Below are positions 1,949-55,800 of a stretch of DNA of 64,000 bases, one piece after another. Position numbers and translations under genes: made by a program. The first letter of the stretch is position 1; each line of letters starts with the position of its first letter. Origin of the DNA: Diatrype stigma (Eukaryota; Ascomycota; Sordariomycetes; Xylariales; Diatrypaceae); assembly GCA_022225965.2 (NCBI GenBank), contig JAKJXP020000041.1, positions 186,001 through 250,000 on the forward strand, given 5' to 3'. Below the pieces are notes generated by a model. It was not told the origin of the DNA, searched no databases, and worked only from the letters and a program-made list of their open reading frames with translations.

Positions 1949-4263
1949 TTAACCTAGTCTCGTCGGAACCCGCTGTGGCAACACGCCCTCACGTGTCGGC
2001 AACACCACTTCCATCAACCCCGTTGTAGAGTCGAAGGACAGACGGTCAATGGCTGTCTCGCGCATGGTGCCATTTCCATCCGGAATCGCAAACCGATGGT
2101 ACGCGATGTACCAGTCGTCCGTGCCGGGGACGTTGATGACCGAGTCGTGACCTGTACCTAGAATCCCCTGCGAGGCATCTTTCTGCAGGATGACTCCCTG
2201 GTACGTGAACGGTCCGAGAGCGGTCTCCGAAGTCGCGTAGCCCACGCGATAGTTCTCTGACCTGGTGTCGTCGATGGAGTATGTCAGGTGGTAGAGTCCT
2301 TGGCGGTAGTTGATGAACAGGCCCTCCCGGAAATCGACCAAGCCCTCTAGCTGCCCAAGCGTCTCCCACTTGATGGAAACCATGTTATCGCCCAGCTCAG
2401 CAACAAGTGGTACGCCATTTCCCCAGTACAGATAATACGTTCCACTCGCCGGGTCTTGGAAGACGACAGGGTCAATCGCTTGGTTAGTGGTTATTGCCTC
2501 GTTGTTGAGGATCATCGCGGTCGGCTCTGCCGTAAACGGTCCCTCGGGTGAGTCGGCGTAAGCCACGCCGATTGTTTTGCGATCGTACTCTGGGTTGTTG
2601 CCGCTGAAGTAAAAGTAATACTTCCCCTCACGCTCGATGGCCGTTGGGGCCCATGCGTTGCCAGTAGCCCAGGGAACATTTCCGTTCTCGCCATCGAGTG
2701 TCAGGAACGGCTTATCCGCCCTTGTCCAATGTACTAGGTCATCCTGTGATTGAGAATTCGTATCAGCATCCTTGTAGCTAGAAGTAAATGTGAAGCGATG
2801 AAAAAGCTTACCGATTTCCAGACATAGAACTGGGTGCCGCCCCAGTCCGGAATCCCATCAGTGGTCGCGTAGATGTAATACGTCTCGCCGAACACTGCGA
2901 TGTTCGGATCGGCATAAAACCCCGGCAAGGCCGGACTGTCGCGTGGTGCGAGGCGGGTGCTCGCTCTTCGGGCTGTAGTAGCCGTGTTTTGTGTCAGGGA
3001 GGAAACCTCCGCGGCGGTAATCGGAATGACCGTGCCATGTCGAGGGCTCGTGGGCAAACTGAACGACGACGAGACTTTCCAGCTGGGGTTGGCGATGTCC
3101 GCTGTTTCCAGGGGGATGTATCCACGACTAGTGTACTCATCGACAAAGAGGTAGTACTTGTCACCGTTGGCATCTCCCGGGTTGGACTTGAAAGTGGTTG
3201 GACCCTCCACGGCGCTCGTCCCAGCATTCTTGCCAATGCATTTGGCGATCTGCTTCCACGAACCCAAAGAGGCTGTGAGGGATGACGAGCTTTCCTGGAT
3301 GATGTCTGTGCACCCGGTACTAGCCCCCCCTTCGTCCTTGGTGAAACGGTAATACACATCGCCGGCCTTGATGACTGTAGAGTCGATCCGTGACACTCCG
3401 GAGTCTTGCCAGATTTGCGCCTCGCTGAAGGTGACGAAATCTCTGGTCGTGGCGTACATCATGCGATGGTAAGTCGACCCCGTGTGGTTGGGGTCGTTGG
3501 TCGAATACAGAGACGATGCCCAGAACACTACGTATTCTCCAAGGTCCTCGTCGTAATAAGCCTCTGGCGCCCAGGTGTTTCCGGCGGTCGCGGGGGAGAC
3601 CAAGACGTGCCGCTGCGCTGACCAGGTATGCAAGTCCTCGCTCTCCCACACTTCGATGTAGCGACTACCAGACCTAACCGAGTCGCCCCAGGACGTGCCA
3701 CTGCCAATTGACAGGTCGGTTGCGATAAGAAAGAACCTATCGCCTTCATGGGACCTCATGATGAAGGGATCGCGGAGCCCTTTGGTACCCTGTGTCGATG
3801 TCAAAACTGGCTGTCCCCCATTCAGCTCCTGCCACTGCAATGCGTTGTTGCCGTTGCTAGAGGCGAAGTATATCTTCTCCCCAGCAATCGAGTCGCCTGT
3901 GAAGTATGCGAAGGCGTAACCCTCGAAAGGATCAAGTACAGCTGCTTTCCTAACTGTGGCAGTCAGGTTCCGGCTCAATGCTGTCCCGCCGCTGTCAACG
4001 GATGCAGTCAACGTTATCTCCTGGTCATTTGATGACGGGCGATGCACCACACCGTCGGATCCTATCGCGGACGGATCACTGCTGGTCCATGTGATGGACA
4101 ACCCATCCACCTCCTGTGGCAAGTGAAGGTTGCCTCGGACATTGTCGACGTTTGTCACGGTCACAGAAGATAGCGCTGCTGAGACCTGTTCTGCATCCCT
4201 AGGGATCGAGCGGCCGCAAACCAACGCAGCGCATATGGCAATCGACAAGAGAAACCGGGCCAT
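1949..4263 (-). CDS. Secreted glycoside hydrolase family 43 protein with two catalytic domains
   Basis: Two exons, 4263..2812 and 2743..1949, are joined by a 68-nt intron (GTAAGC...CACAG), giving 748 residues. Residues 1-17 are a signal peptide. Residues about 25-107 resemble an atrophied bacterial Ig-like domain (ITWTSSDPSAIG, then VHRPSSNDQEITLTA). A first GH43 five-blade propeller follows (FAYFTGD, GLRDPFIMR, NTWAPEAYYDEDLGEYVVFWAS). A second begins near PGFYADPNIAVFGETYYIYATTD and continues with GNAWAPTAIEREGKYYFYFSG and GTGHDSVINVPGTDDWYIAYHR. GH43 enzymes are inverting arabinanases, arabinofuranosidases or xylosidases; the exact specificity cannot be read here. The intron was chosen because it restores the WKSDDLVHWTR strand of the second propeller. 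Confidence 0.85.
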
Positions 4264-5822
4264 TATGAGCGACCTGTGCCGAACCCAAATCCAGAGATGG
4301 TTTAAGGGAAGTCATCGTCGTAGAACTCCAAACTCTCTTCGATATATAGGTGTATAGGTTGGGTATATGTGGATAATTTCGCCGTATAAGCGACAAGTTA
4401 ACTACGCGCCCGCGGGCCACTCGGTACAGAAGCATGCGAAAGCACTCCTATTATAGGCTCTTGTCCGTTTGGGCCGCGTCGTATTGAACCACATGACTTG
4501 TCCTTAGCAGTGCCGAGAGCGATCTGCATTCAGTAATGCGGTATGGTCAACCCGTTACCCGATCGAATGGCATCGATGGCCGTTCGCGGGAGTGGATCGT
4601 AAACCTGCTTTGCTCATCCCGCATTTGCATGGGCGACCCCGGATCTCTCCGGATTCTTCTACCCCATAAGTTCTAGGGTCGGAAACCCCACAGACTAAGT
4701 ATCTATAGAGTCTAGACCACTTGAATCTGTGGAGTTGTTGTCGTTGGAAACCAGGATTGCTAGGCTGAATGGACCTACAACGTCGCAGTATTATACGATG
4801 CCGCCTGTTATGGCAGAATCTTGATCTTTACCCGTAATTGTGAGAGCACCAAGCAGCCCGGGCACTGCTTCCAAGATCGTGACAACTTCATTCCGTCGAA
4901 TTCGGGTTGGGTCTCATACTAATGGTAGACTAGTCGAGGCAATTGGGCTCCCGGCCTGCTGCATAGCCATCTCAACTACCTAGTCTTTCAAGACATTGAA
5001 GACATCAGATTAGGTACTTATGTAAGTAGTACTATAGCCACTTTCCCGGATATGCTTAAGTGACTCTGCAACATTCGATGTGCCCTCAGGTTACCATGCG
5101 TTTTGTCTGTCTCCTATTTGAGCGGTTACCCTACATTAAGTTGACTTAAGACAACTAACTGGACCGACCATGGCTACCGATCCAACAACGAACACGGATG
5201 GGTGCCGCTTTCGATCGAGATTGACACTAAAGTGAAGTAAATCTGACGAATCTTCCGATAGGTCGCACACTTCACAGTATGCTCATCTGTTTGCATAGCT
5301 GCCACTCTTGGGCGTTTGAAACAGAGTGGGTAGAGAGAAAAATATGGAACTAAAACTTGGATAGGTCATTCGACAGCTTTGTGATTTACCTTGTTGAGTG
5401 GTTTTGGGGCATGACCGGCCCACTCATCGGGTTTACGCGGCCGTCAACACCGAACCTGGGATGTGATCTTGCCGGACAGGTCTTCGGGTGATCAGCGTGG
5501 TCCCGAGGTCCAATCATTTCAATTGTGTGTGAAGGTACACGTGAAGTTATTTATTTCATTTCCCACATTATCAACATAATTCCGTCATGAAGCCATCTTT
5601 TTATCAGTTAGACATTAGTTACTAGTATGCAAGCATTCGTCGCATGAACATGCGATCCCTTAAAATCGTCAACATCGTCAAGTCTTATAGTGGAAGCCAA
5701 TCACAGTAGATAGAAGCCAACCACCCAACTCCGATCCTGTCTCCGATGCTCTCTCTGCCTCTTCTGTGCCTGAACGGCCCGCTCCGACTCGGTTAAAATG
5801 CGAACTGATTGTCGCTTCGCAA
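4264..5822. other. Intergenic spacer
   Basis: About 1.6 kb between the GH43 start and the 3' end of the PAP2 gene. The sequence is comparatively AT-rich. A CACGTG hexamer lies at about 5538-5543, but no phosphate gene is adjacent. I see no credible reading frame or RNA gene. Confidence 0.45.
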
Positions 5823-7105
5823 TCAAACCATCTCATCGCCTCTCCTAGGAGCGCTACCAGCACCGGCACCACCGATAGGCTTACGCGGGTGCGTCACGCC
5901 GCCCCCAGTACCAGTGCCGACACCAGAGCCGCCGACGCCGTTATTCGCGGCCCCCGCGTGGTGGGGGCCAGCACCACCGCCGTAGTGCTCGGTGGGGTGG
6001 ATGCCCCAGCCGACGCGGCGGGTCCAGACGGCCTCCTCGAGCTCCATGCCGCCGAGGGCGTAGGTGGAGGCGTTGGTGCGGTTGAGGGGGATGTGGTTGA
6101 AGCGCCAGTCCCAGACGGCGGCGTAGACCATGCGGTAGGCCGAGAAGGCCATGACGGTGCCGATGACGGCGCCGGCGAGCACGTCCCACCAGTGGTGGTA
6201 CTCGTCGATGGTGAGGGCGCCGGCGATGAGCGTGGCGCCGAGGATGGGCGCGTAGATCAGCACCAGCTTCCACATGGCCGGGTGGTAGTTGGAGAAGACC
6301 TTGAGCTTCGCGTTCAGGTACAGGTACAGGTAGACGAAGCCGGCGAAGGCGGCGGTGGAGTGGCCCGAGGGGAACGACTCGAGCGAGTCGTTGATCTCGT
6401 TCTGGTCGCCCGTGCAGATCTCGCTCGTGTAGTACAGCTGCTTGAACCCGGCGGCGTTGTAGGGCGCGCCCACGTCGGTGGGCCCGTTGCTGGCCCGGCT
6501 GATGTCGGGCTTGCAGACGTCGAGGAAGTGCGGGCGCAGCCCGCCGATCAGGCACTTGAGGAACACCTGGAAGACGGCCGCCGTGATGAGCGAGTACAGC
6601 AGGCCCAGGATGCCGTTGTTGACGTCCCAGAATGACCGCACGCGGATCTGCATCAGCAGGATCACGCAGATCGGGACCATGGCCGCCAGGAACGCCGCCA
6701 GCCAGATCGGGATGATCTCCTTGCGCAGCGGGTAGCCGAACTCCGGGTACACGATCTCCCCGTCGGAGAAGGTGACGGGGAACGAGCGGGTCGGTGCTGG
6801 AGGTGCTTCGTAGACCTATATACCATTGACAAGATGTCCGTCAGCGAACTACTGCGAAACTAGGGATTGGATGATGGTGCAAGTTGAAGGCGGTCACTTA
6901 CTGCGAGGCCTAGCACTCCCATGAGAACCATGGTCAGTATGTCCCCCCAGGTATGCTTCAGCCATTGGCCGAAGGGCGGCTTGTGCATCATGGTATACGT
7001 CGCAGGCGTGTATTCGCGATTACGCCTCCGCGATGAGTGTCCATTGGATGCAGCCGCAGCAGGTGCTGCCTGGTTAGGATTCTTTTCGCGGTTGAAGAAA
7101 CGCAT
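5823..7105 (-). CDS. PAP2-family lipid phosphatase (DPP1/LPP-like)
   Basis: Exon 1 is 7105..6902 and exon 2 is 6815..5823, joined by an 86-nt intron with a consensus GTAAGT donor, giving 398 residues. The join yields GLAVYEAPPAPTRSF, typical of fungal members. Several hydrophobic segments are visible (LTMVLMGVLGLA, IWLAAFLAAMVPICVILLM and later ones). Phosphatase motif 1 is KCLIGGLRP (about residues 155-163), motif 2 is FPSGH (217-220 for PSGH), and motif 3 is EYHHWWD with its catalytic His and the Asp near 279. Motif 3 lacks the canonical Ser-Arg pair. The C-terminal tail is rich in Gly, Ala and His. The family dephosphorylates diacylglycerol pyrophosphate or phosphatidate in membranes. This is probably a housekeeping gene. 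Confidence 0.9.
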
Positions 7106-8973
7106 GTTGTCGGTGATAGGCCACGCTTATCAGATGGGATGGTACCTATTGTCGACCTTGGGCAGCGTCCGTGTCAGGTACGGTTACAGAGTACGGGGGG
7201 TGGTGACGGTGAAGACCAGACACCAGGCCTCGCTTGTCGGCTGCGAGAGGGATAGCGTGGTCGTAGGGGGTGAGTATGGAGGTAGGGAGCAGAGAACATG
7301 AGGTAGGTCAGTGAAGAGGGACGCAAGGGGGTTTATTTTAATATATCCTTCGAAGCACCTATGAACCTACAATACACAAAACAAGCAAACGATGATGGCA
7401 TTGCACCACGTCACCTAGAGCAAATACAAACCTACCCTGCCTACATACAAACCTACTTACCCAGGTACCATAGAAAGCGTTTCATGCAACGCCTGGACGG
7501 CTGGCTGAGCGCTGAACATCCTGCATCCCTCTCGATATTGGGTTGTGGAAGTGTTACCGGACCTCACGTTTGCGTCATACATATCGTTTTTTGCTGCACT
7601 AGAGCATCATCACTCGGAAGGACCCAGGTAGGGTCTTAACTGAATACGACAGCTGGACCAGTGAAAAGGGGTTTAGAACGGCATTTCCATTCCGATCATT
7701 CTGGCGTTTGGCGGTGCACTGCTACTACACAGGCTGAATACTGGTTAGTTGGTGTAAGTGTTTGTTCTGAAACTCCCGGGGTGTAATAGCTCAATAGGTG
7801 CTAATGTACGAAAGTCCCGACGTCATTCAGCCCTAGAAACTTGGCAGACTTGGCAACGGCTTGACGTGAGTGGATCGCCAACGGCCATACAGCGCGGTAG
7901 CAACCGACGGAAAACGGCAAGTAGTTACTGAAGCGGTTAAAGTGTTCAAGTAATGATAAGCCATGCGACGGCAGCAATTGGTTGCATGATCTCCATAGTC
8001 TAGCAGAACTGTCCGTCATGGACCTTCAGCTCTAAAAAAACAGCTTACCTATCGCCTATGTAGGTCGGTAGTTACGATCTTGCTAAGAAACCAAGATATG
8101 CAGTCCCTTTGCCAAATCCCAGTCTAAGCGTTTCAAAGAAGGTATTATCAGGTCACAATGTTCCAATAGCTTGATGCCTTCGTATATCGGCCATGCAATA
8201 CCTATAATTTCGGAGTATCACCTACCCAGCTTTTGCGCCTATCAAGTGGCCCGTTATGGTCTATCCAGCTCAGCTTCAAATGCTGTACAGTTCACCACAT
8301 ACAGGGCTCCCTCCTATGTTCCTCATACCCCTGGCGCAAGAGTGTTCGACCTGCCTTAGCAAATGAGGAGTTTCATATGTTTCCCGTTGTGAGTGGGCTT
8401 AGGTCACCATACAGTATAAGCCCAAGTATGGGACAGTTATGTAGGCTTGAGATATACGACAGTAGTGCGCGTTGGGGGCACTTGGGGACATACTTCAGTA
8501 CCTAGGCAGTTGGATAATCACGAAGTTCAACCTCCCGAAGGGCGATAATTTGCTAGTTGTCTGAGACATTGGTACTCTAGGGGAGGTTACTTATATAGCT
8601 CCCATAGAGAAACCCCAATGTTGATGGAGTCCCATCCACGTCGCTGCGTTTGAAAAACAGCATGTACGCTTTTACCTTGCTGAACGAACCCCCGAGACAC
8701 CTAACTCACAAAGCCACTGTCACCAGTCATATTGATAGCACCGCGCAATTCGAGGAATCCCAAGGGTGATCAACCCGGGCTGCACGCGTGAGCATTGCCA
8801 AGGTTTGCTGAAGCATGAAATGTAGAGATAGACGGGGAATAATATAACAACCTAGGAATCGATGTATTTCACCTCCTATAGTTACTAAACCCGTAAGCCG
8901 AACGCCACGCGATGCCATAAACCCGCCCTGCCATCTAGCCCTTTTGATACGCATCCAATCGTCATCCCATCAA
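7106..8973. other. Intergenic spacer
   Basis: About 1.9 kb between the PAP2 start and the SRP54 stop. The first part is the probable PAP2 promoter and 5' UTR. The rest contains only short frames without domains. No RNA gene or repeat was recognised. Confidence 0.45.
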
Positions 8974-40651: not shown

Positions 40652-42166
40652 TCACCCCAAACCTGGTCCAGAGCAGATGGCGCGCATCGTCTCAAGGGCA
40701 TCTTGTTTGTGCGCTGCTAAGTCAAGACCCCATATAAAACTCCACCTACCAGGCAAGGACTCTCTCAACTTAACCGGGTCGAGACCGATGGAGGGATCCT
40801 GCCCGCACAGAATCTTGCCGGTTCCGCGACTCGAGTCCACCACGCGCTGACCCCGTGGTCTTCTGACGGCATCATACGCTTTGAAAGCGGCGTCGAGCTC
40901 GCCTATGTTGCTGACGTTCGCTAGTAGATGACTGAGGACCGCGGCGTCTTCGATGGCGAGACCAGCCCCTGAGCCTTGCCATGGTGTTGCTGCGTGTGCG
41001 GCATCGCCCAGGATGCAGACGCGACCGTTGGCGTAAGTGGGAGTTTCCTTGTGCTCCCATTCAGAGTAAGCCTTGAGGCCTGTCCGTTCGGATAGCAGCT
41101 GTTGATCGATAAGTCCATGCCCTGAAATAGAGTTTCGGGGGGGGGTTTACATCGATCACCCCTTTCGCAATAGGACCCTCGGGCCAATCTTCCAATGTCT
41201 TGGTAAGTAGCTCTTTAGTCAACGGTCGTTCTCTGCCTATGGACCAGTCCCTGTCCACTGCCGACAAGACGAATTGGACCAACGTCCTGTTCTCGAGAAC
41301 ATCATGCATGATGAACGAGCTGTTCCCGACCCATCCAAATTCACGGTCTAGCTCGAAATACCGATCTCCAAACACAGCACACGCCCTCTCGTGTGGAACG
41401 AGAAGCCGGCAGTCCCAGAAGCCACTAGGTGACGCCTGATATTGGACGGCTTCGCCCACTACATGCTTCCGGACCTTGCTGAATATACCGTCTGCGCCAA
41501 TAACTGCGTCAAAGTGTTTCACGGAGCGATCCTTGAATATGACGTCCAGTCTATCATCGTGGGCCTTGATTTCAGCGAGCTCATGATTCGCATGCAAAAT
41601 CTTCTTGGGTAGGGGCGCCAAGAGCTCGCGTAGCAACGAGGAGCGATGGATTACGACCGCGGGCTCCCCGGGACCTGCAATGTCGAATAGGAGAGTGCCC
41701 GCATCTGGTCCTGATCCCTAGAACCAATTAGCACGCGTCCTATAGCTCTTTTATCTGTAAACACGATTCTGAGGTTAACTTGGAAGAAAGACAGCGAAGA
41801 CAAGCCCGCGATGGAAGCTGGAAGCATCACAAATAGGATGGAGTGCGTTGTTAGTGGACGTGGTGCATATATTAAACAAGCGACCCCCAGGAGCCTCATA
41901 CAAGGCGAGCTTACCAACATAAGACGAGAATGAGGCTTCGGGACAGCGGCAGCTCTATTGAGGGTCTCCTTCGCGGAAGGAAGAACCTGCTGCAGAGCCT
42001 TCTGGGCATATGGACCGAGCGTAACAGCTGCACCACGCTCAGAGAATTCGGCCGCCGATTCATAGAGATCAATCTCTAGATGAGGCACATTTATGAGCGC
42101 ATTGGCAAGGGTAGCTCCAGCGAGACCACCGCCGATGATTGCCACACGGATAGGAGGCTGAGGCAT
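40652..42166 (-). CDS. FAD-dependent monooxygenase (salicylate-hydroxylase-like)
   Basis: Exons 42166..41915, 41717..41151 and 41098..40652 give 421 residues (426 from the ATG at 42181). The Rossmann motif is IIGGGLAGATLANAL (GGGLAG about 12-17). The middle has DAVIGADGIFSKVRK, the family's DG motif, and the second FAD motif is GDAAHAATPWQGSGAGLAIEDA (from 304). Intron 1 is 197 nt. Intron 2 is 52 nt, carries a run of nine C and ends at CAACAG; removing it restores the expected VIDLL...AYSEWEHKETPTYANGRV. The family hydroxylates or oxidatively decarboxylates aromatic substrates with NAD(P)H. It is 4 kb from the UstYa genes and could be a tailoring enzyme there, but that is only inference. Confidence 0.88.
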
Positions 42167-43810
42167 TGTCCGCGCTTCCAACCAGTCAAGTAAACGGCCT
42201 AGGTAGGTTCAGGTCGTTACCACAGGTAAAGCTAAAGCCAAGGTAAACCCCTATTCATATTCTTATGGTCGAAGCTAAGGAATGACCCGTCTGGTTTAAT
42301 GTAAGCAAATTAAAGGGCAAATTAAAACAAAGTACCTCTGAATGGTTAAAAGCACCAGATTTTATTACTTGTCTGGAGATCGGTAAGATGCTATTGTGCG
42401 GTATTGTCACATGAAGTCTGGGGTAAGGCTTCATGGAATTCGATCAGTGCAACACGGGTCATATCCGGTGCAAGCGGTAGGTATTCCATAATAGCATACC
42501 AACGATGCCCGCGTGGCGAACCAGTTCACTTCACCGAACAGCATGGTAGGTCGATGTTCTTTTTGGTCTCATCTTCGATATCTTCTGGATCCTGTCAGAG
42601 TTGCAATTATGCCATCAAGTTACAGCCGTTCCAATTGGAATGAACTCCCATGAAGCCTTCAGCGATTCTCACCCAATAAACTCGGCCAAAAAACTCCACC
42701 TGAGGATCAACTCGCATTCAGGATTCATATCCATGGAAGCTTACTGAGCTCTGGGTAGACATACGACCGTGTTCTGTGCTACACTGCTACGGGCTGCATG
42801 TCAGCACCTCAACGGGACCTACAGCCGCAGGTGCTATCGAATCACTGTCTGGTATAGTCATGTTGCAGGCATATTGGGGGGTTGATCTGGGCCATAGATA
42901 TAACTACCCCCTCCAGTGGCTAAAGATATCTCTGACGGGGAGGCGATCATTCGCTGTGCAAGCCAGTGCCAGTCATGTTGTATTCACAACCTTATCCATT
43001 TAAGGATCAATAAAGCTCCCGATGCAGATCCGACCGGCAAGGCTACCTATCAGTAAAGCAAGATGATGCATACCTCCTACGCACCTCAGTAATCAAGTAC
43101 CCATACACCCGCATACCGTAGTAGTTCTCAATGTAACATCGGGACGCGACCCCGTGTCTGAGGTAAGCAACTAGGATCCAAAGATGGCGTACAAAGAGTC
43201 CCGCTTTCTATGTGTATAATGCTACCACATGCTGCAGCTGAGATAATCTTTTGTATAGTGAAGCCATGGCGATATGCAGCTGAATCGATAGGCATCCTTG
43301 GCATCTTACCCCGCTCAACAACCTTCTGCCTGCTCTGTATATTCTATCCCCTTCTGGCAAGGCTTGCGAGGTTGTCCATTCGGCCGCCTTCACCTTACTA
43401 CACTCTACTTATACCCGTACTCTGGGAAAGAGTCATGCCCATATTCGTCAAAGATTAGCCAGCTACGTTGAGACTACGCTTGAGCACTCTTGGAACATGC
43501 ATTCCGCATCAGTTATTATCAGTAAAGAAGGATGAATACCCGACAGATAGCATATCAAGTGATTACTGGTCAGGCTGAGGGACTACGTGAAGGATATTTC
43601 ACCCTTATTCTGAATATAAGACGTCTATTTGTTTATGGATATCGTAACTCATGTAGGATACGTATCGAATATATATCTATCAATCGGTAATCGCTTTCAA
43701 GCCGGAAGCAAGGTGATTCATACATCTGTACCATTGGCACTAAAAAGGGGGCGGGATGCAGTTGTCGACGGCGGCCGAGATCGATGACGGATAATACCTA
43801 GGCAGTATCC
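42167..43810. other. Intergenic spacer containing one degraded reading frame
   Basis: 1.6 kb between the monooxygenase start and the 3' end of the receptor-like gene. A stop-interrupted protein-like frame at 42388-42770 is listed separately. The rest shows only short frames. Confidence 0.45.
42388..42770 (-). pseudogene. Possible degraded or spliced gene of unknown family
   Basis: One minus-strand frame reads as protein-like segments separated by stops: VDPQVEFFGRVYWVRIAEGF, MGVHSNWNGCNLMA, DPEDIEDETKKNIDLPCC and GHRWYAIMEYLPLAPDMTRV, continuing ALIEFHEALPQTS. The composition and hydrophobic pattern look like real protein. A short intron (acceptor CTGACAG before DPEDIED) could remove two stops, but TGA after SVK remains, and another follows GYES. 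I do not recognise the family. Confidence 0.3.
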
Positions 43811-45328: not shown

Positions 45329-46332
45329 GGTGCCAATCTCGCGTCGCGGGCGGTACGGAGGTCGCGTCGCGGGCGGTACGGAGGTCGCGTATCCTCGAGG
45401 TTTTGGGTATTCTGGGTGTGGAGCTCTTAGATGTTTATAATCGAACCTGGTGAGGCTCTTCGTGTCAGTTGAAGGTAGTTATTCCCGAGAAAGTTGAAGA
45501 CTGCGTATCCGCGGAGAAGCACACTTTTTGCGGGAAATGCAATAGGTGCGGTTGACAGATGATTGCACTCAGCCCTTTTACCCCCTGCTCTCTTTACTTC
45601 CAATACTCATACTCAAAGCATGCTTTGATAGACTTACGTAAGATAGGTTGACGGGTTGGCCTGTGATTTGGCCTGGTTTGATGGTCAACATCCCTATTCA
45701 GAGGATTAGACTCCCTGTCCGTAAGTCAATCCTAGGCTATGAACTATTACAATATTGACTGCAGCTGATTAAGCGGGGGCTGCAATAGAGGAGGGTAGCA
45801 GTGATATAATCCTGAGGAGGGGTCGGCATATGCAGCTTACGGAGTACCTATGTCGTATTGTAGGAGTACATATTCCGGTTGCTCAGCTCAAGTCGGCACG
45901 GCACTCATGTAACGCTTGCGATGAACGTCGTGCGTAGTCTCCAAACATAGTCCTGCATGTGAGACACTGCCTTGCTGCTCGATATCGATCACCCCTAAAA
46001 CCTCTTGTTGATTGGGTGCCGGGAGGGGGAGTGTGGGGGCGTGTGGATGGAAAGAAAGAAAGAAGGCGAATGGCAACTTGCCTCGCTTTTATTCCCGCTT
46101 TCGTAAAAGGACAGTCGCATGATTGCACATGAAGCATCCTTATCAAGGCAAAGCTGGTATACCAAAATGAATTCTTGCCCATCGGCTCACGTAAAGCCTT
46201 GCGGAAGGTTTGATCAGTCATTTAGCCATCGATTGCGTTGCCCCTTCAAAGTCCATGTCAACTTGAGTACTGCTTCCACCCCTTATTCTTAAAGCAAGCT
46301 CGCAGCTACGAAATGGATGCATCCTTGTAGAA
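45329..46332. other. Divergent intergenic region between receptor-like gene and UstYa gene 1
   Basis: 1.0 kb. It starts with a doubled 23-bp unit directly upstream of the receptor-like start. A minus-strand frame at 45888-46221 lacks any domain. I see no other gene. Confidence 0.45.
45338..45383. repeat. 23-bp direct tandem repeat
   Basis: TCGCGTCGCGGGCGGTACGGAG with one flanking base occurs twice in tandem and begins a third time. It lies 10-55 bp upstream of the receptor-like ATG and is very GC-rich compared with the flanks. Confidence 0.8.
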
Positions 46333-47382
46333 ATGGGTCGACAGGAAGATAGCATTGAAATACCATTTTTGGCTGATGACGATGGCCTTGGCGATGAATC
46401 GATGGTCAGAAATCCGACACGCAGCTTGCGGTCGGGGCTGTCGAAGAAGCATAGGTTCTTGTTCGCGCTTCAGATTATCTTTGGCATTGCAAACTTGGCC
46501 TTTCTCATTTGGAACATGGTCAATAGAAGCATCCAATACACCCATGTCGTCAACTGTGATAGACCCGAAGAGATATTATGTTAGTAGTCTGACAGAGCCT
46601 GCGTTAACTGTATATGCACTAACATCAAATTCCTCAGCTCCCGCGGAATCGGCTATCCGATACACTGTCGAGATTCACTCAACATCAGGTCCAAGCCCAT
46701 TCACTGGGCCGCCCAGTCCTGAAGTAGATCAAGCCTGGTCGCATTTGCTCAGATGCAAGTAGCCTGGATTTCAACCTCATATAGCCACTATGTACGACAC
46801 TAACCAGTTCTTTTCTAGCGACAATGATCAAGCTGTCTGCAGATGAAATGAGAATGATGAATAAGACATCTATCGCACTACGAGATGGTACTGGGTATAT
46901 AGGCTACCTCGAGTCTCTTCATATGCTACACTGTGTGGTATGTCGTTCTCGTTAACGGTCCGGGTTAAAGCTAACGAATAGAAGAAACGGATATATCAAT
47001 CGCAATATACCGAATACTATGCCGGGCCACGATACGACAAGGGCTTTTCTGTCGGTCATATTGGTGGGTACTTTGCCCCCCTTTCTTCTTCTTTAGATAC
47101 AGTATTAGGATATAGAGCTAATGCTTAACAGATCACTGTCTCGAGGTACTTCGCCAGGGAATCATGTGTAACGCTGATGTAGCCATCAATACTTTCTTCT
47201 GGGATACCTCGGGCGAAATCCAAGCTAACAGGACGGGACCCCGAAAATGCACGAACTGGGATCAAATATCGAAATGGGCGGATAGAAGGATGCTTAGGCT
47301 TGAAAGCCGTGAACAGTTTAGTCCATCACTGGTGCCAAGTGACGAGCCGGGAAGCATTGGGCCAATGGACCTGGTGGGATAG
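46333..47382 (+). CDS. UstYa/DUF3328 family oxidase-like protein 1
   Basis: Five exons (46333..46579, 46638..46754, 46819..46937, 46982..47063, 47132..47382) give 271 residues. A single membrane helix lies at about 42-63 (FLFALQIIFGIANLAFLIW). The lumenal domain has SPAESAIRY, IALRDGTGYIGYLESL, then the two diagnostic HXXHC motifs: HMLHC (156-160) and HIDHC (187-191), followed by LEVLRQGIMCNADV. The last splice creates the second motif. Intron 2 (46755-46818) uses a GC donor (AGAT|GCAAGT); no GT donor fits the phase. UstYa proteins are thought to catalyse oxidative cyclisation or related oxidation of ribosomal peptides. It converges on a second family member and lies 2 kb from the precursor. 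Confidence 0.88.
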
Positions 47383-47705
47383 ATCTGGGCATTTAAGGTC
47401 GTTTACTCTCTCATCTGCGTCAAGGTGTATATCCGTCTCCAGGATTTAGTTTGTTAACATCATAAAAAAAATTTGGACTTCATATTATGATCACTGACAC
47501 TGGTCACTATAAACCTGCACACGGAATGTATACCTATCCATGTGTCTGATACTGGGTGTTATAAAAAGGTACTTTCGGGCCGGTGACATATATACAGCAT
47601 ATGTGTGGGGCGTAATACCCCTATTCCAACACACACTGAATTGCTCCTATCTAATGCACTACCTGCCATATGGCAGTATGTGTACTCAACATAAAACTGT
47701 AAGAT
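47383..47705. other. Convergent spacer between the two UstYa genes
   Basis: 323 bp, AT-rich, with no gene. It should contain both polyadenylation regions. Confidence 0.6.
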
Positions 47706-48735
47706 TCACGATGCGACCAAATTGTCTACGTTTGCCGAGCGTCCTATCATCCAAGCGTGTAACTTATCCCAATTCACACATCTTTGTACATCTGGCGTGC
47801 GATGGTATAGATGCCCTGATACGCCTCGCTCGCCATCGCCCCATACTAATGTGTACATGGAGAAATCCAAACGGCACATGAGACTCTGACGTATGAAGTC
47901 AAGACAGTGATCTGGAGGAGCCATAGTGCCTAATTAGTGATGCGCAGGAGTCATGGACGTGGCGAGAAATGTCAAGTACTGACCCGCATGGAACAGCAGA
48001 GTTTCGAAGTCCTCCCCACCTGGTTCCAAGTTGGAGTAGAAATGCTCGCGATATAGCCACTGCTTTATTTTCTTCTATTCATGTGATTGCAATCAGTGAT
48101 ACTGCGTCTGGGACGTTGAATCGGGCGGACAAGGAACAACATACAACGCAGTGAAGGTCATGCCCGACCCCGAGCCCTGCCGCGTATCCGCCATCTTTCA
48201 ACGCGATTGACTTGGAACCATGCAGCTTCAATTCGGTATCTGATACTCGTATTAGAGTTCCTATATATACGATCAAGAACATTAATACTGAGGTACTGTA
48301 TAGCATCTTAGAAGGAGACTTGCCTGCTAGGATGTCATGCATCGATTGTTCCCACTTGGCCCCTGGGTAGCCAGTGAACCGGGTATCGTTGGCGACCATC
48401 GCCCGGTGCTCATACTCAATGATGGAATTGGCAGGTGCTGAATAGATTAGCGACCTGGGAAGAATCGAAAGGGTCGTCGTGCTCTCACAGTAAGGTTCTG
48501 AAACCTGATTATCGCTGTTGTTCCGCCCACCCGCTGGACTTAAGTCGAAAGCTGGTATTCGTAGAAATATCCCACTTAGGAGAAGTATACAGAGCACTGA
48601 GAGCACTGCATTTAGGGCTAACGAGAGCCTCAGAATTTGGCGTCGACTCTTGTCCAGAACCCACCAATGGGAATCTTCCAGGGTCTCGTTTCTGCCAACT
48701 CTCTCCAAGAAGGGGGCGTTCTCTTCGATCGACAT
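47706..48735 (-). CDS. UstYa/DUF3328 family oxidase-like protein 2
   Basis: Four exons (48735..48324, 48239..48145, 48074..47984, 47911..47706) give 267 residues. One membrane helix lies at about 35-57 (ILRLSLALNAVLSVLCILLLSGIFL). The lumenal domain shows PRSLIYSAPANSIIEYEHR, WEQSMHDILADTELKLHGSK, SIALKDGGYAAGLG and both HXXHC motifs: HDLHC (164-168) and HADHC (198-202), then LDFIRQSLMCRLD. The second motif appears only if exon 3 runs to the GTCAGT donor, which decides that boundary. Intron 1 (48240-48323) has a GC donor (GCAG|GCAAGT); its length is a multiple of three, so the unspliced frame also stays open. The start at 48735 was chosen because the upstream extension lacks family resemblance. 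Confidence 0.87.
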
Positions 48736-48969
48736 AGCTGAGCAGTTTGGTGGTGTTTCGGGCTCAGAACCTGCACAGGAGGCCTTTTTCCGAGGGTGGA
48801 TATAGTTGCAGATATATCCCCCCTGTGAAGGATCCCAAGCCGCCAATGTCGTGCGAATGTGATGCATGAGAATCAAGCTTTCCTATTTGTCTAAGTTCGA
48901 CGCCGTCGACGCAATGGCGACCTGTCTGAAACCCACCTCCGATGCGTCAATAATCATGAAGTAATGCCT

Positions 48970-48984
48970 GGGGGGGGGGGGGGG
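48970..48984. repeat. Poly-G tract, 15 bases
   Basis: A homopolymer about 235 bp upstream of the UstYa gene 2 start (poly-C on its coding strand). Confidence 0.9.
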
Positions 48985-49258
48985 CGAAATCCATAGGTGG
49001 AACCCTCCATCATCGCTGGACAAGGCTCCGGCTTTGGTCATGCATACCGGCACTTACACCATTACATTCGAGGTGGAGACTTTTATAGCTACACCACATG
49101 TGCCTTAAAACAATACAACATGTACTTGATTAATTTAACGAGGAAGGACTCCAGTATGCCTCTACTACGCCCCTGTTTTAAGCACGCCTACATTTACGAT
49201 GCGACCATAGTAGCCTGACATAGCATCCGGGGAGTTGGTGGTGGTCGTGCATGATTTC

Positions 49259-49264
49259 TATAAA
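49259..49264 (+). promoter_or_regulatory. Probable TATA box of the RiPP precursor gene
   Basis: TATAAA in CTATAAAGA, 103 bp upstream of the ATG at 49367. Confidence 0.5.
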
Positions 49265-49366
49265 GATTGCCCCTCTCCAGCCAGTATCCTCTCACCCAAA
49301 GCTTTGCTCACTCATCCACAAGTGAAAACAAGTCCCACACTCGACACGACAGCCCATCAACCGAAA

Positions 49367-49688
49367 ATGAAGCAAAAGATCTTCCCCTTCTTTCTCCTAG
49401 CCCTCGCCACTGCTCTACCAAGACCTTCAGGTAAGCCGCCGCTCCGGTCCCTTGCCTTGGCCTTTGCGCTAGAGTTGCACATTGACGAAACCAACAGATC
49501 AAGAGGAGTCTTTGGCTAAAGTTGAGCGTCGAGAGGCATCAACTGACCTCACCGTTCCCTTCGGAGCTGCATACAAGCGCGATGGAGCAACTGAATTCGA
49601 TCCTGATCTTCTCTTGAAACGGGATGGAGCAACCGAATTTGATCCCGATGTTTTCTTAAAGCGAGATGACGCATCTCAAGATAATTAG
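49367..49688 (+). CDS. Putative RiPP precursor: secreted, tandem Kex2-bounded repeats
   Basis: Exon 1 is 49367..49430 and exon 2 is 49498..49688 (intron GTAAGC...CAACAG), giving 84 residues. Residues 1-17 are a signal peptide (MKQKIFPFFLLALATAL). After an acidic leader (DQEESLAKVE) come basic pairs RR (32-33), KR (48-49), KR (62-63) and KR (76-77). They bound one divergent segment EASTDLTVPFGAAY and two near-identical ones, DGATEFDPDLLL and DGATEFDPDVFL; a short tail DDASQDN follows. This is the architecture of dikaritin-type precursors, whose repeats are cut by Kex2 and cyclised by UstYa proteins. Two UstYa genes sit immediately to the left. By analogy the core would begin at or after Phe (FDPDLLL, FDPDVFL), following an acidic linker. 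The product is unknown. Confidence 0.8.
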
Positions 49689-51134: not shown

Positions 51135-52819
51135 TCACGCCCCGGCATCGGAGACGGAGCCGGTTTCGAGGTGGTGGGGCTTGGCGTCGCCCTTCTGCTC
51201 GTCGTGCACGAACTCCTGCGGCAGGCCGACGGGTCGGTTCTTGGCGAACCGGACGGTGCCCCAGATGGACGGCGAATCCCTGAACATCAGGTCGATCTCC
51301 TCGAGGTTGCGGCCCATGGTCTCAGGGAACAGGAAGTACACCGACACCGGCACGCAGGCCGCGATGACGGCGAACACGATGTAGTACTGCCATCCGATGG
51401 TGTTGATCGCCACCGGGGTCACCATGGCCACGACAAAGTTCCTGTTTCGATCACCCCGCGTTAGTTTGTGTTGCTTTTCTTACAGGCGGAGGGAGAGAGA
51501 AAAAACCGAAGGGAAGCAAGACAGAAAAGATAAACTTACCATAGCCAGTGGTTGGCCGTGGAGATAGAGGACATGGCCATGCGCAGGCGCAGGGGCGCGA
51601 TTTCGGTGCAGTACAGGAAGTTGGCGCCCAGGAAGCCGATGGGCACGAAGGTGTTGTAGAGGTAGATGAAGCAGCCGGCGGCGATCTGGGCGCTCGTGTT
51701 GTCGGCGGGGAAGGAGGTGGCGACGGCGAGGGCGATCATGCAGGCGGACATGCCGGCGCCGCTGACGATGAAGACGAAGCGGCGGCCGAAGCGCTCGATG
51801 CAGAGGAAGGCCAGGAACGACGACAGGAACTTCCAGGTCAGGGCGCCGCCGGAGAGGGTGCGCGCCAGCAGCGGGCTCATGCCGAGGTTCTGCTGGAACA
51901 GGATCGTCGCGTACACGCTGATCAGGTTGCTGCCGGACATCTGCTGGAAGAACTGCAGCAGGATGCAGAGGCCGAACCGGTAGGCGAGCTTGTCCTCGCC
52001 CATCTTGAGGATGTCGCTCAGCTTGGTCACGTGCCGGCTCGTCTCCTCGAGCGAGAGCTCGATGCCGGACACCTCGGCCTGGACCTCGAAGGAGTCGGCG
52101 GCGAGGCCGCGGTAGGCGGCCAGGGCGACGGCGGCCTCCTCCTTGCGGTTCTTCAGGACGAGCCAGCGTGGCGACTCGGGGAAGAGGTAGGTCGAGGCCA
52201 TGAGGATGAGGGAGAAGAGGCAGGCGATGGCGATCGGGGCCCGCCACGTGACCGGGCCCTCGGGCAGCGTGTAGAAGCCGAGGTCGATCCAGGACTCCAG
52301 CACGTAGCCGAGGCAGATGAACAGGCCGGTGAGGACGACGTGCTGGCCGCGGTTCTTGGCGCCCGACGTTTCACTCTGCCAGACGGGGACGATGGAGCTC
52401 AGCATGCCGACGCCGGCGCCGAGGATGATGCGGCCGACGAGGAACTGGGCGAGGTTATAGGAGGCGCACTCGAGGATCTCTCCGATCAGGGTCAGGATGG
52501 CGGCGCCGAAGACGACGTTACGCCGGCCGAATTTGTCGCCTGTCCAGGAGCAGGTGAGCGCGCCGAACAGCGCGCCGATGACGAAGATGGCCACGGTGAA
52601 GCCCTGCAGCGTCGAGTTCTTCGACTTCTCCTCCCCCTCCGTGTTCACGGTGTCGATGGCCGGGAAGGTCCGCACCCAGTCCTCCTCGGTGATCAGGCCA
52701 CCGACGCCCGCCTGGTTGTAGCCAAACAGGATGAACGCGGGCGCGACGACGAGCGCGATCTGCAGGTTGCTCAGGAGAGCTCCCTGGAGGCCAAAGCGGT
52801 GTTCTCCGGATTGACCCAT
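51135..52819 (-). CDS. MFS sugar/polyol transporter
   Basis: Exon 1 is 52819..51540 and exon 2 is 51441..51135, with a 98-nt intron splitting a Trp codon, giving 528 residues. Sugar-porter signatures are GDKFGRRNVVFGA, GRIILGAGVGMLSSIVPVWQSE, PESPRWLVLKNR, LLQFFQQMSGSNLI, IERFGRRFVFIVSG and PETMGRNLEEIDLMF. Twelve membrane helices are expected. The ATG at 52819 (MGQSGEHRFGLQG) was preferred; the 62 in-frame codons before it do not resemble a transporter N-terminus. The family imports hexoses, pentoses, polyols or quinate with protons. It borders the RiPP locus, but it is a sugar-type rather than drug-type MFS, so cluster membership is doubtful. Confidence 0.93.
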
Positions 52820-55800
52820 TTTCGCCGACTTTTTTGTCTTTTTCTGACCCAAAAACTTGACTTGACACACGACACACCCACCAAAAGAGGATGAAGGAAG
52901 GGGGAGAGTTCGGTGGGATGGGTAGGTGAAATCGAGAAAAAAAGACGAATAGGCCAAAATGTCGAGAGAGCAATCGCCTTTATTTTTATCCCCCAGTCCC
53001 AACAAGCAAGTCCGACCAGTCCGACCCAGTCAGTCAGCCAGTCCGTCCGTCTTCGCAGGGCGACAGGACAGGCCCCTCCGCATCGCGCCTGTTAGCCAGC
53101 CAGCCATCCTCCACCTTATCTGGCACCAACCCAGGGTCCTCGTCTCCCCAATCGCGTCGCGGACCCATGACCGCCATGACGCACTTTTTGAGGAGCCCCA
53201 TGGGAGTATGGGGCATGCGACGCCCTGCCCAGAAGCTAGACCCCGGAAACTCCATGATTTTCCTTCGAACCCCGGGACGGGGGTTTTAACCCCCTTGCCC
53301 CAGACCGGCAAATAACGTAGAGACGGGCTTGCCCTTGCAGCCGAAAACAGCCAACGCTGTTGGAGGCGTTCGTTGAAGCCCGAGAAATCATCTTCGTGGT
53401 CTCCCGTTCACGATAATGAGGCCTCGCTAGACCTTGCCTACCGTCGCACTACTCACGTAACGACCCGGCCCTTTTTCGGCGGTGGGTATCATATAATGGG
53501 TCAGGCGTCTCCGCATCTCGAGACCCTGGGTGGGCGCTAGGACGGACTTGACAGGCTTACTGGGATTTGCTTGCGCCGTTCGACTGCTGCAAAATGGCCC
53601 GGTAGTCTTGCGGTTTGCGGCGTCTGCTCCGACGAAACCAGAATAGCATCCGCACGAACATTCGCAGCGATGTCGATCGTATGGGGAATCCTGTCAGTGA
53701 CAGCAGCAAATGGCCGAAACATCATCCATTTACACTGCAACTCGGCTGCAAGCAACGATACAAGCTTTGCTAGAGTAGATAACAAGCTCACCAAGACATG
53801 CAACTAGAACGGTAGAACGGCAATCTTGCTGCCGTTGAGGCTCTAGTCCATCGCTAGATTTACTAGAGGCAGTAAGAAGGCCGGTAGGTGGTGATAGTGC
53901 CAGTGGAGTTTCGTCAAAGTGCGCAATCAGCCGCGTATGATAGGCCAGCCGTCATGGCGCGATGAGCCGATGGCCCACCTCAAGATACGCTTATGATCCT
54001 AATTCCCACATCCAGGTCCCAGGACGCGATCCCAGGGTCTTAAAAACCCCTAACTCCGTCCATCCGTGGGATCTGACCTCCCGAGTCATGATCTGATTCC
54101 AAACATCGGTGGGTAATAAACAATTCCATCAGAGTCTTCACTCCTCCAAAGCCAGTTGCAATGGCAGGTGTGATCGGTCCCGGAATGGGTCAAATAGATT
54201 CTCCCGTGGCCGCAACTTGTTGAGGCACAAATATCTCCCATAGGGCCCATCAACACCGCCGCACCTAGAACGCCTCACTGGAGCCGGCTCCTTCGGAGGG
54301 GAGAAGTTTGCGAGGGCCATGGCAGCTCAGAATGAATATCAACCCCTCTATATCATGTTCCATAACCGTATACGTAATCATGGTCGTAATTATCCGCCGA
54401 AGCCGCCTCGCGGGAGATATCATTTTTCAGTATTATCAAAGAGACGACGCCACCAACAGGGCACACCTTCAATTCCTTCACAGAAAAAGATCAGCAATAA
54501 TAACTAGAATTCGGTATTAAGAGAAAAACATCATAGAAACGCCAATAAGCTTCACTATTGTCCGTCGTTGGCATCAATTGGCGTTTGCTCTGTTTTTGTC
54601 TTTTGTTTTTTTCCGTTTCACTTTAGCCCTGAACGAAACAAGAGCCCCGATACCACCATATGCATATCAATTCCAGATCTCCGAGAAAGCCTTGGCAGGA
54701 TCGACATCGGACATATGTATAGTGAATGCACCTTATCACGAAAGCGTTATACCAGGCTATTACCTACATATTTCAATGGTTCGCACGTTAGGTCATCTCA
54801 CAACAGGAGCTCCCACCTTTATCGGACTTGCGAGCGCATGTTCGCTTATGGATGAGTAACGATCCTGATCAGGTGAGTTATGACCCACGAGACCAGGGAT
54901 TCCGCCACGGGCGATCGGGTGAGAGACCCTTTCGTGCATAGTGATTGTGCTGGAAAGAAAGATACGAGAATTGGACCGAGAACCCGTTTTTGTGACTCGT
55001 TGGGGGTTGTTACCTACCGATTTGAGGACCTGAAGGCCACCTAGGCCAGATCGCAGCCGACATCTTATGCGGTTGGTAAATGATGACTTAGGTGCACCAT
55101 CGCGAAAGATGTTGGCCAGAACCTGCTAGGCCAAGAGAAAGCCGGCATCGCAAAATCGACATCGCTAGTTCTATGGAAGCAACCGCGTGATGTAAATATA
55201 CTCATTATATCTTCTAGCTATCCCTGCCTTGCTGCATCTATGTAGGTAGTTCGTCGAGATCTAGTTACTATAAAAAGGAGCCTGGAGACCCGAACGATTG
55301 TTCCCGGGTCTCCACAGTCCAGCGTTACATCGATTCCAATACTAGGTGGTACCAACCATCTTGGGAGGCGGAACTTTCCTGCGAATAGCAAAGCATGGAT
55401 TTAATATTCGGGAAGTCGTTAGCAATTCAAGTTACATGCTTGTTTAATTAGCCGGTAGAGTCCAATAGTCCGGAAATTTATAATAACAAGCGACGGGCAG
55501 AAAAAAACAAGCAAAGTAACATAACATGCTCGGAACAGAACACCGTATTTCTGCTTTTCATTGCGGCCGTCCATGCGATACCATTCCCTCTTTGCGCCAT
55601 ACACTGTTAAACCCATTCGCTGAACCCGAACCTACTAGATCGGATCCGCGCCAGCCTGCCGCCTCCAACGGCGGGCGGTCCGATCCCTCCCGCATTCCGC
55701 AGTAAACCCCTTCCCAAGCCCGCGCTAGACTCCGATTCGATGCCAACGGGACGCAGTACCTAGACAAACTACCTAAGTAGGCTAGTTATGGTCTTCTCGC

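What the first reader, a model, noticed from the sequence alone, without database searches (positions are those of the whole stretch)
46333..49688. Candidate new dikaritin-type RiPP locus: two UstYa genes and a Kex2-repeat precursor
Seen: two DUF3328 proteins, each with one membrane helix and two HXXHC motifs, arranged convergently; and, divergent from the second, a secreted 84-residue protein with repeats bounded by Lys-Arg. Known: ustiloxin, phomopsin, asperipin and victorin clusters pair UstYa proteins with such precursors. Inference: this is a small RiPP pathway. There is no tyrosinase (UstQ-type), S41 peptidase or methyltransferase within 4 kb, so it would be an unusually compact cluster that relies on general Kex2 processing.
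Basis: partly seen in the sequence, partly recalled or inferred. Interest (0 to 1): 0.9.

Follow-up and report, generated by a model that had tools for sequence, protein, structure and literature searches.

The report
Compact fungal peptide-making gene trio
Three neighbouring genes in an ascomycete fungus look like a minimal production line for a small modified peptide, a secreted precursor with two repeated peptides plus two copper-oxidase-like enzymes, and relatives of all three are kept together in two other species; it is a new example of a known kind of pathway, and its product has not been seen.

Summary
UstYa-1 (+, 46333-47382, 271 aa) and UstYa-2 (-, 48735-47706, 274 aa) are convergent PF11807 proteins, each with one membrane helix and two HxxHC motifs. 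An 84-aa precursor (+, 49367-49688, one intron) carries two 14-aa repeats, DGATEFDPD-xxL-KR. They differ at 8 of 14 codons, 6 silently, so selection acts on the peptide. DGATEFDPD is identical in 6 of 6 repeats; the next three residues vary. The two UstYa proteins are old, separate subfamilies, often linked in further ascomycetes. Best reading: a minimal Kex2-processed RiPP pathway whose two copper oxidases act on a Phe-centred core. This is a new member of a known kind (a 2020 survey counted 1,758 Kex2-repeat precursors with UstYa-type neighbours). Its two repeats fall below the three-repeat cut-off of both genome-wide surveys I read. Transcription, product and chemistry are untested.

The parts
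46333..47382 (+). UstYa-1: PF11807 (UstYa/DUF3328) oxidase, 271 aa, 5 exons (46333-46579, 46638-46754, 46819-46937, 46982-47063, 47132-47382); second intron GC-AG
   Evidence: Splice model; PF11807 138.9 bits; homologues P0034 74% identical, P0035 65%
47706..48735 (-). UstYa-2: PF11807 oxidase, 274 aa, 4 exons (48324-48735, 48145-48260, 47984-48074, 47706-47911); first intron GC-AG
   Evidence: Splice model corrected from the homologue consensus; PF11807 105.4 bits; homologues P0003 69%, P0004 67% (first model)
49367..49688 (+). Kex2-repeat precursor, 84 aa: signal-like N-terminus, phase-1 intron 49431-49497, spacer, two repeats, short tail
   Evidence: homologues P0001 (66%) and P0002 (65%)
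49581..49622 (+). Repeat 1, DGATEFDPDLLLKR
49623..49664 (+). Repeat 2, DGATEFDPDVFLKR; against repeat 1: 6 synonymous and 2 non-synonymous codon changes of 14
48736..49366 (.). 631-bp divergent intergenic region shared by UstYa-2 and the precursor; a TATAAA at 49259-49264, about 100 bp before the precursor's ATG, read by eye
   Evidence: promoter function not tested
47383..47705 (.). 323-bp convergent intergenic region between the two UstYa genes

Best explanation
A minimal RiPP (ribosomally made, modified peptide) pathway. The precursor enters the ER and Golgi, the general Kex2 cuts after KR, and each molecule yields two short peptides, D-G-A-T-E-F-D-P-D-x-x-(L/F), trimmed by general carboxypeptidase. 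UstYa-1 and UstYa-2, membrane-anchored oxidases with their domain in the lumen and two HxxHC motifs that hold copper, act on the constant F-D-P-D part. The most likely chemistry is an oxidative cross-link from the invariant Phe to an aliphatic residue of the variable tripeptide, with hydroxylation as second choice. Shown here: genes, motifs, repeats, constraint on the repeats, linkage of the three in two other species. From literature on a related enzyme: the copper centre. Inferred: processing, pairing of the two enzymes, cross-link, secretion of the product.
For: Both UstYa proteins are far over the PF11807 cut-off and have both HxxHC motifs. The precursor behaves as a gene under selection for its peptide: 6 of 8 codon differences between repeats are silent, and both homologues found keep the N-terminus, ALP(R/K)PS, a spacer and two repeats, with DGATEFDPD identical in 6 of 6 repeats and KR after each. 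Linkage: precursor, UstYa-2 and UstYa-1 homologues share one contig length in H. submonticulosa (1,627,656) and one in A. moriforme (274,600). The three species form one clade in both enzyme families (100/99 and 100/100). 12 of 31 UstYa-2 hits share an exact contig length with one of 49 UstYa-1 hits, three of these contigs being only 12-17 kb long. In a survey, DUF3328 genes near KEP genes peak at the adjacent position, 1.7 per KEP that has any (PMC7329392, passages). DUF3328 enzyme CctR is a binuclear copper dimer that needs HxxHC (PMC12435403, parts 1-2 of 3). Victorin is cyclised between a Phe and a Leu (PMC9233826, passages), a Tyr-free precedent.
Against: No transcript, peptide or product is known. 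Contig length is a proxy for linkage, and the H. submonticulosa contig is 1.6 Mb, so adjacency there is not shown; I could not read the other species' loci. Only two relatives hold a detectable precursor; 10 further species with the enzyme pair on one contig length gave no precursor hit, though this word-based search would miss a diverged 80-aa protein. 19 of 31 UstYa-2 hits have no UstYa-1 hit of equal contig length. Two repeats are few for a KEP. Nothing here shows that the UstYa proteins act on this precursor, and DUF3328 enzymes also hydroxylate or halogenate non-ribosomal peptides (PMC12435403).
Confidence: 0.8

Rival explanations
1. The precursor gives unmodified linear signal peptides (pheromone-like or hormone-like), and the two UstYa genes beside it serve something else.
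For: 78% of surveyed Kex2-repeat proteins have no DUF3328 gene among the 15 nearest (PMC7329392, passages). Processing by Kex2 alone would suffice.
Against: The linkage to the same two enzymes is kept in both species that have the precursor. In the survey none of 227 putative yeast alpha-factors and 3 of 216 putative fungal pheromones had DUF3328 neighbours (PMC7329392). The repeats lack Cys and Trp and the X-Ala/X-Pro dipeptide runs of alpha-pheromone precursors (those features recalled).
Confidence: 0.1
2. The UstYa pair is the conserved unit and modifies a product of other genes; the small repeat protein is a recent, loosely associated passenger.
For: The pair shares a contig length in 10 species where no precursor homologue was detected. 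DUF3328 enzymes also serve non-ribosomal pathways (PMC12435403).
Against: No NRPS, PKS or other core gene was seen beside the pair: the recognisable flanks are a fungal-rhodopsin-domain protein and a sugar transporter, with an FAD monooxygenase 4-6 kb away; the smaller frames scanned gave no domain over its cut-off. Precursors of this kind diverge fast, so absence in a word-based search means little.
Confidence: 0.08
3. The locus is part of a larger cluster that includes the FAD monooxygenase (40652-42208) or the sugar transporter (51135-53029).
For: Ustiloxin biosynthesis uses flavin monooxygenases (PMC12048977, passages); the monooxygenase has FAD_binding_3 at 52.4 bits.
Against: A fungal-rhodopsin gene lies between. 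FAD_binding_3 is not, as far as I recall, the domain of the ustiloxin flavin monooxygenases. Conservation of these flanks could not be tested.
Confidence: 0.1

Closest known systems
Dikaritins: ustiloxin, phomopsin (UstA/PhomA precursors, UstYa/UstYb, tyrosinase UstQ)
   Same: Secreted precursor with Kex2-bounded repeats beside DUF3328 genes; two DUF3328 genes as in ustiloxin (PMC7329392)
   Different: Two repeats only; no Tyr in the constant part of the repeat; no tyrosinase or S41 peptidase on the contig and no methyltransferase domain in the flanking frames scanned
Asperipin-2a
   Same: Small cluster with a DUF3328 oxidase; no cluster peptidase (PMC12048977); no tyrosinase (recalled)
   Different: One DUF3328 gene (PMC7329392); cross-links made by Tyr side chains (PMC9233826)
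Victorin
   Same: Kex2-type precursor; ring between a Phe and an internal Leu (PMC9233826)
   Different: Phe at the C-terminus of its core, extensive further modification and chlorination; here the invariant Phe lies before Asp-Pro-Asp
Kex2-processed repeat proteins (KEPs) with DUF3328 neighbours
   Same: Signal-like N-terminus, repeats bounded by KR, DUF3328 gene adjacent
   Different: Two published surveys ask for at least 3 repeats (PMC7329392 methods section; PMC6339444 passages); this family has 2 in all 3 species seen
Cyclochlorotine hydroxylase CctR (DUF3328)
   Same: One membrane helix, two HxxHC motifs; two further conserved Cys after the second motif in both subfamilies, CctR using Cys for its dimer disulfides (PMC12435403)
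   Different: CctR is a homodimer acting on a non-ribosomal cyclic peptide (PMC12435403); here two separate subfamilies occur as a linked pair. Residue-by-residue mapping to CctR was not done

Membership tests
UstYa/DUF3328 (PF11807) | Match to the Pfam model over its cut-off | tested here: met
   138.9 bits and 105.4 bits, cut-off 25
UstYa/DUF3328 (PF11807) | HxxHC(x)nHxxHC and one N-terminal membrane helix | tested here: met
   (helix by hydropathy only); two motifs also in 39 of 49 UstYa-1 hits and 23 of 31 UstYa-2 hits, the rest mostly short
UstYa/DUF3328 (PF11807) | Binuclear copper dimer, O2-dependent | not testable with these tools
Dikaritin, later definition (DUF3328 as class-defining enzyme) | DUF3328 gene with two HxxHC beside a repeat precursor | tested here: met
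   definition as reported in PMC12048977 (passages)
Dikaritin, original five-gene definition | Tyrosinase in the cluster | tested here: not met
   22 tyrosinase matches in the genome (a lower bound), none on contig C41
Dikaritin, original five-gene definition | Methyltransferase in the cluster | tested here: not met
   No methyltransferase domain among the flanking frames scanned between 40.6 and 53.7 kb; frames were picked by hand, and some short ones were not scanned
Dikaritin, original five-gene definition | Transporter or peptidase in the cluster | tested here: inconclusive
   No S41 peptidase on the contig; a sugar-type MFS transporter lies 1.4 kb beyond the precursor but its link is untested
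Kex2-processed repeat protein (KEP) | Signal peptide | tested here: inconclusive
   Hydrophobic N-terminus kept in three species; its 19-residue hydropathy is modest (0.83) and no signal-peptide predictor was at hand
Kex2-processed repeat protein (KEP) | Repeats bounded by dibasic sites | tested here: met
Kex2-processed repeat protein (KEP) | At least three repeats of 8 or more residues (survey criterion) | tested here: not met
   Two repeats; criterion in PMC7329392 methods; at least three also in PMC6339444
RiPP | A modified peptide derived from the precursor | not testable with these tools
   No mass-spectrometric data
Ascomycete alpha-pheromone precursor | MF_alpha domains or pheromone-like repeats | tested here: not met
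   No Pfam match for the precursor at E up to 0.001; repeats have no Cys or Trp (that these mark alpha-pheromones is recalled)

The most novel reading that the evidence does not exclude
UstYa-1 and UstYa-2 are two old, obligately paired subfamilies that work as a heterodimeric copper oxidase, a portable two-enzyme module that reads a constant recognition stretch (here DGATEFDPD) and cross-links or oxidises the invariant Phe with a freely varying tripeptide. It would be found across Pezizomycotina with precursors of one to three repeats that repeat-counting surveys have missed.
Probability: 0.25. Interest if true: 0.6.

Novelty: new member of a known kind. Interest (0 to 1): 0.4.

Why it matters
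It adds a small, three-gene, evolutionarily kept system in which UstYa chemistry on a core without an invariant Tyr could be studied without tyrosinase or other tailoring enzymes. It also shows a blind spot: precursors with two repeats fall below the cut-offs of two published surveys, and a 2021 study of Hypoxylaceae clusters said that it could not judge the true diversity of RiPPs because it searched by similarity to known precursors (PMC8403587, passages). A constant recognition stretch followed by a varying tripeptide is also what one would want for making peptide variants.

Tried and rejected
Precursor paralogues elsewhere in the genome: none found, only the window's own two exons matched. 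PDB relatives of UstYa-1 by sequence: none up to E = 1. Structure prediction: switched off, so no fold comparison. Shared promoter motifs: the longest exact words common to the region before UstYa-1 and the divergent region are 9 bases, with no control run; not pursued. Literature search for the repeat strings: 0 papers. Search for a heterodimer precedent (UstYa, UstYb, heterodimer, at least two of the three): 25 papers, 15 listed, none of the listed rows holding all three (listing only). A pheromone reading was rejected (see rivals). A larger cluster with the FAD monooxygenase was left open. Mirror-tree test: distances of the two enzymes correlate at r = 0.77 over 13 species, 0 of 5000 permutations reach it, but any two vertically inherited genes would do this, so it carries little weight. 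My reversed-sequence control was ill-chosen (tandem repeats stay repeats when reversed): it gave 3 hits, one of them (L029) in a locus with no forward hit at that setting, another (L024) in the locus whose repeats have no forward dibasic sites.
Full report
WHAT IS THERE. The window lies in an unnamed 49-Mb genome in 224 contigs (window = C41:186001-250000). The closest relatives found for all three proteins are in Hypomontagnella and Annulohypoxylon, so the fungus is probably one of the Hypoxylaceae (inference). Two convergent genes encode UstYa/DUF3328 proteins. UstYa-1 has 271 aa and five exons. UstYa-2 has 274 aa and four exons. Each has one hydrophobic stretch and two HxxHC motifs, and both exceed the Pfam cut-off of 25 bits by far (138.9; 105.4). 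Both have a GC-AG intron, phase 1, at the equivalent site before the 'NKTSI/GSKSI' block, and a phase-1 intron inside the second HxxHC motif, which speaks for common descent and for sound models. Divergent from UstYa-2, 631 bp away, is the 84-aa precursor MKQKIFPFFLLALATALPRPSDQEESLAKVERREASTDLTVPFGAAYKR-DGATEFDPDLLLKR-DGATEFDPDVFLKR-DDASQDN.

IS IT REAL. The two repeats differ at 8 of 14 codons, and 6 of the 8 differences are silent: the DNA has drifted while the peptide was held. The best 12-residue match within the mature part (11 of 12) was reached by 0 of 2000 shuffles. Searching 5.8 billion proteins with the precursor gave 2 hits at E up to 1 among 19 candidates: 73 aa in H. submonticulosa and 79 aa in A. 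moriforme, both deposited as hypothetical proteins. Both keep the N-terminus, the ALP(R/K)PS joint, a spacer with SLAKV, and two repeats. Over the three species DGATEFDPD is identical in 6 of 6 repeats and a KR follows each; the three residues between are LLL, VFL (window), VFL, LYL (H. submonticulosa), AVF, LVF (A. moriforme). A constant recognition part followed by a varying part is the expected layout of a RiPP precursor (inference).

IS IT A UNIT. The table of each protein search gives the length of the contig that holds the hit. The best UstYa-1, UstYa-2 and precursor hits of H. submonticulosa are all on a contig of 1,627,656 bases, those of A. moriforme on one of 274,600 bases; the A. 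moriforme precursor and UstYa-2 have consecutive model numbers. Equal lengths to the base make one contig very likely; the distance on it was not readable here. The pair UstYa-1/UstYa-2 shares a contig length in ten more species for which no precursor hit came up: in all, 12 of 31 UstYa-2 hits have a partner among 49 UstYa-1 hits, and three of these contigs are just 12-17 kb long; 19 of 31 have none. A tree of 51 rows (30 of 49 UstYa-1 hits, 19 of 31 UstYa-2 hits and the window's two; the rest, mostly partial, short or unnamed, left out) puts the two enzymes into two separate groups (100/100), and the three trio species form one clade in each (100/100 and 100/99). Inside it, both place A. moriforme outside window + H. 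submonticulosa, but that fork is weakly supported (95/75 and 88/51). So the two enzymes are old, separate subfamilies that often stay together, in Xylariales, Sordariales and Eurotiales alike (orders recalled from the genus names).

CONTEXT IN THE GENOME. PF11807 gave 23 exon matches on 15 contigs, a lower bound. I fetched regions around the 14 loci outside the window (L027 was cut at 5.2 kb by the contig end). A scan for dibasic-bounded repeats found precursor-like frames in 4 of these 14 (C19, C85, C42, C154). A loose-setting hit in another frame led me to a fifth, C119, read by eye. With the window, 6 of 15 loci have one; in 9 I saw none. The stricter scan on 92 kb of other sequence (57 kb of window flanks, 35 kb of other loci) gave 0. 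C42 is a second compact trio: a precursor of about 66 aa with units ending IDVADAFKR, IDVADAFKR and TDISEGFKN between two UstYa matches, again without Tyr and with a phase-1 intron, placed by eye, after ALPxP. No tyrosinase match is on the window's contig (22 in all). One S41 match and one Kex2 P-domain match were found in the genome, on other contigs, which fits processing by the general Kex2. The recognisable flanking genes are a fungal-rhodopsin-domain protein and a sugar transporter; other flanking frames that I scanned gave no domain over its cut-off, apart from the FAD monooxygenase 4-6 kb to the left.

HOW IT PROBABLY WORKS. CctR, a DUF3328 hydroxylase, is a membrane-anchored dimer with its domain in the organelle lumen; two coppers bind per monomer, HxxHC(x)nHxxHC is needed, and the enzyme uses O2 (PMC12435403, abstract and parts 1-2 of 3). 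UstYa-1 and UstYa-2 have the same layout, and their families have two further conserved Cys after the second motif. The precursor would meet them in the secretory pathway, where Kex2 also acts. Each released peptide has one invariant aromatic residue, the Phe of FDPD. In repeat 1 it is the only aromatic residue, so if every repeat is processed alike, the reaction is centred there. Victorin gives a precedent for a Phe-Leu ring (PMC9233826, passages). I therefore commit to an oxidative Phe-to-aliphatic cross-link as the likeliest chemistry (perhaps 0.45 on its own), hydroxylation next. Whether the two proteins form a heterodimer is a guess from their pairing.

WHAT IS KNOWN AND WHAT IS NOT. The 2020 survey of 1461 strains found 7878 KEPs, 1758 of them with DUF3328 genes among the 15 nearest, with a maximum directly beside the KEP gene; 65.6% of the repeats of those contain Tyr, so about a third do not (PMC7329392, passages, methods and part 1 of section 6). 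A Tyr-free, adjacent DUF3328-KEP pair is therefore not new in kind. That survey asked for at least 3 repeats, as did the 2019 one (PMC6339444, passages), so this two-repeat family lies outside both. The 2021 Hypoxylaceae study found a ustiloxin-like RiPP cluster in all its Hypomontagnella species by precursor similarity and said that the wider diversity of RiPPs could not be judged (PMC8403587, passages). A full-text search of the held library (5.39 million openly licensed papers) for TEFDPD, FDPDLLL, FDPDVFL, FDPDLYL and DGATEF found none; supplements and most subscription papers were not searched, so an earlier listing is not excluded.

VERDICT. A real, conserved, compact UstYa/Kex2-repeat locus; new member of a known kind; interest 0.4. 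The boldest reading not excluded is a portable heterodimeric UstYa pair with fast-changing small precursors (0.25).

Noticed in passing
L026 (G000:C42:305000-314900), precursor on minus strand about locus 4519-4772: A second compact trio: a small precursor (about 66 aa, units ending IDVADAFKR, IDVADAFKR, TDISEGFKN; no Tyr) between two UstYa matches at C42:308337-308876 and 311412-311684.
   Followed up: partly
L024 (G000:C119:28200-38100), + strand about 6853-7320: A frame with 16 copies of YAIR (ustiloxin-like YAI core) about 1.5 kb from UstYa exons, but with no dibasic KR/RR site and no tyrosinase match on the contig; how it would be cut is unclear.
   Followed up: partly
L032 (G000:C154:56300-66200), minus strand 1715-2566: A repeat protein with a signal-like start and units of about 35 residues, each with two Cys (GDLDVGQCGTVDEAGKILARCVGFDASNAATVARR), about 2-3 kb from a UstYa match.
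   Followed up: no
L020 (C19) minus 3259-3657; L021 (C85) plus 6964-7464: Two further UstYa loci with clear Kex2-repeat precursors: SEAIPFYPKR in 8 units, and GDDAVAYNP(A/L)VYV in 4. The second (Y-N-P-x-V-Y-V) resembles the window's F-D-P-D-x-x-L with Tyr in place of Phe.
   Followed up: partly
window 46755-46818 and 48261-48323: Both UstYa genes have a GC-AG intron at the equivalent position.
   Followed up: partly
window 45340-45385: Two tandem 23-bp copies of cgcgtcgcgggcggtacggaggt just upstream of the fungal-rhodopsin gene's likely start (minus strand), read by eye.
   Followed up: no
window 48970-48984: A run of 15 G in the divergent region of UstYa-2 and the precursor, read by eye.
   Followed up: no
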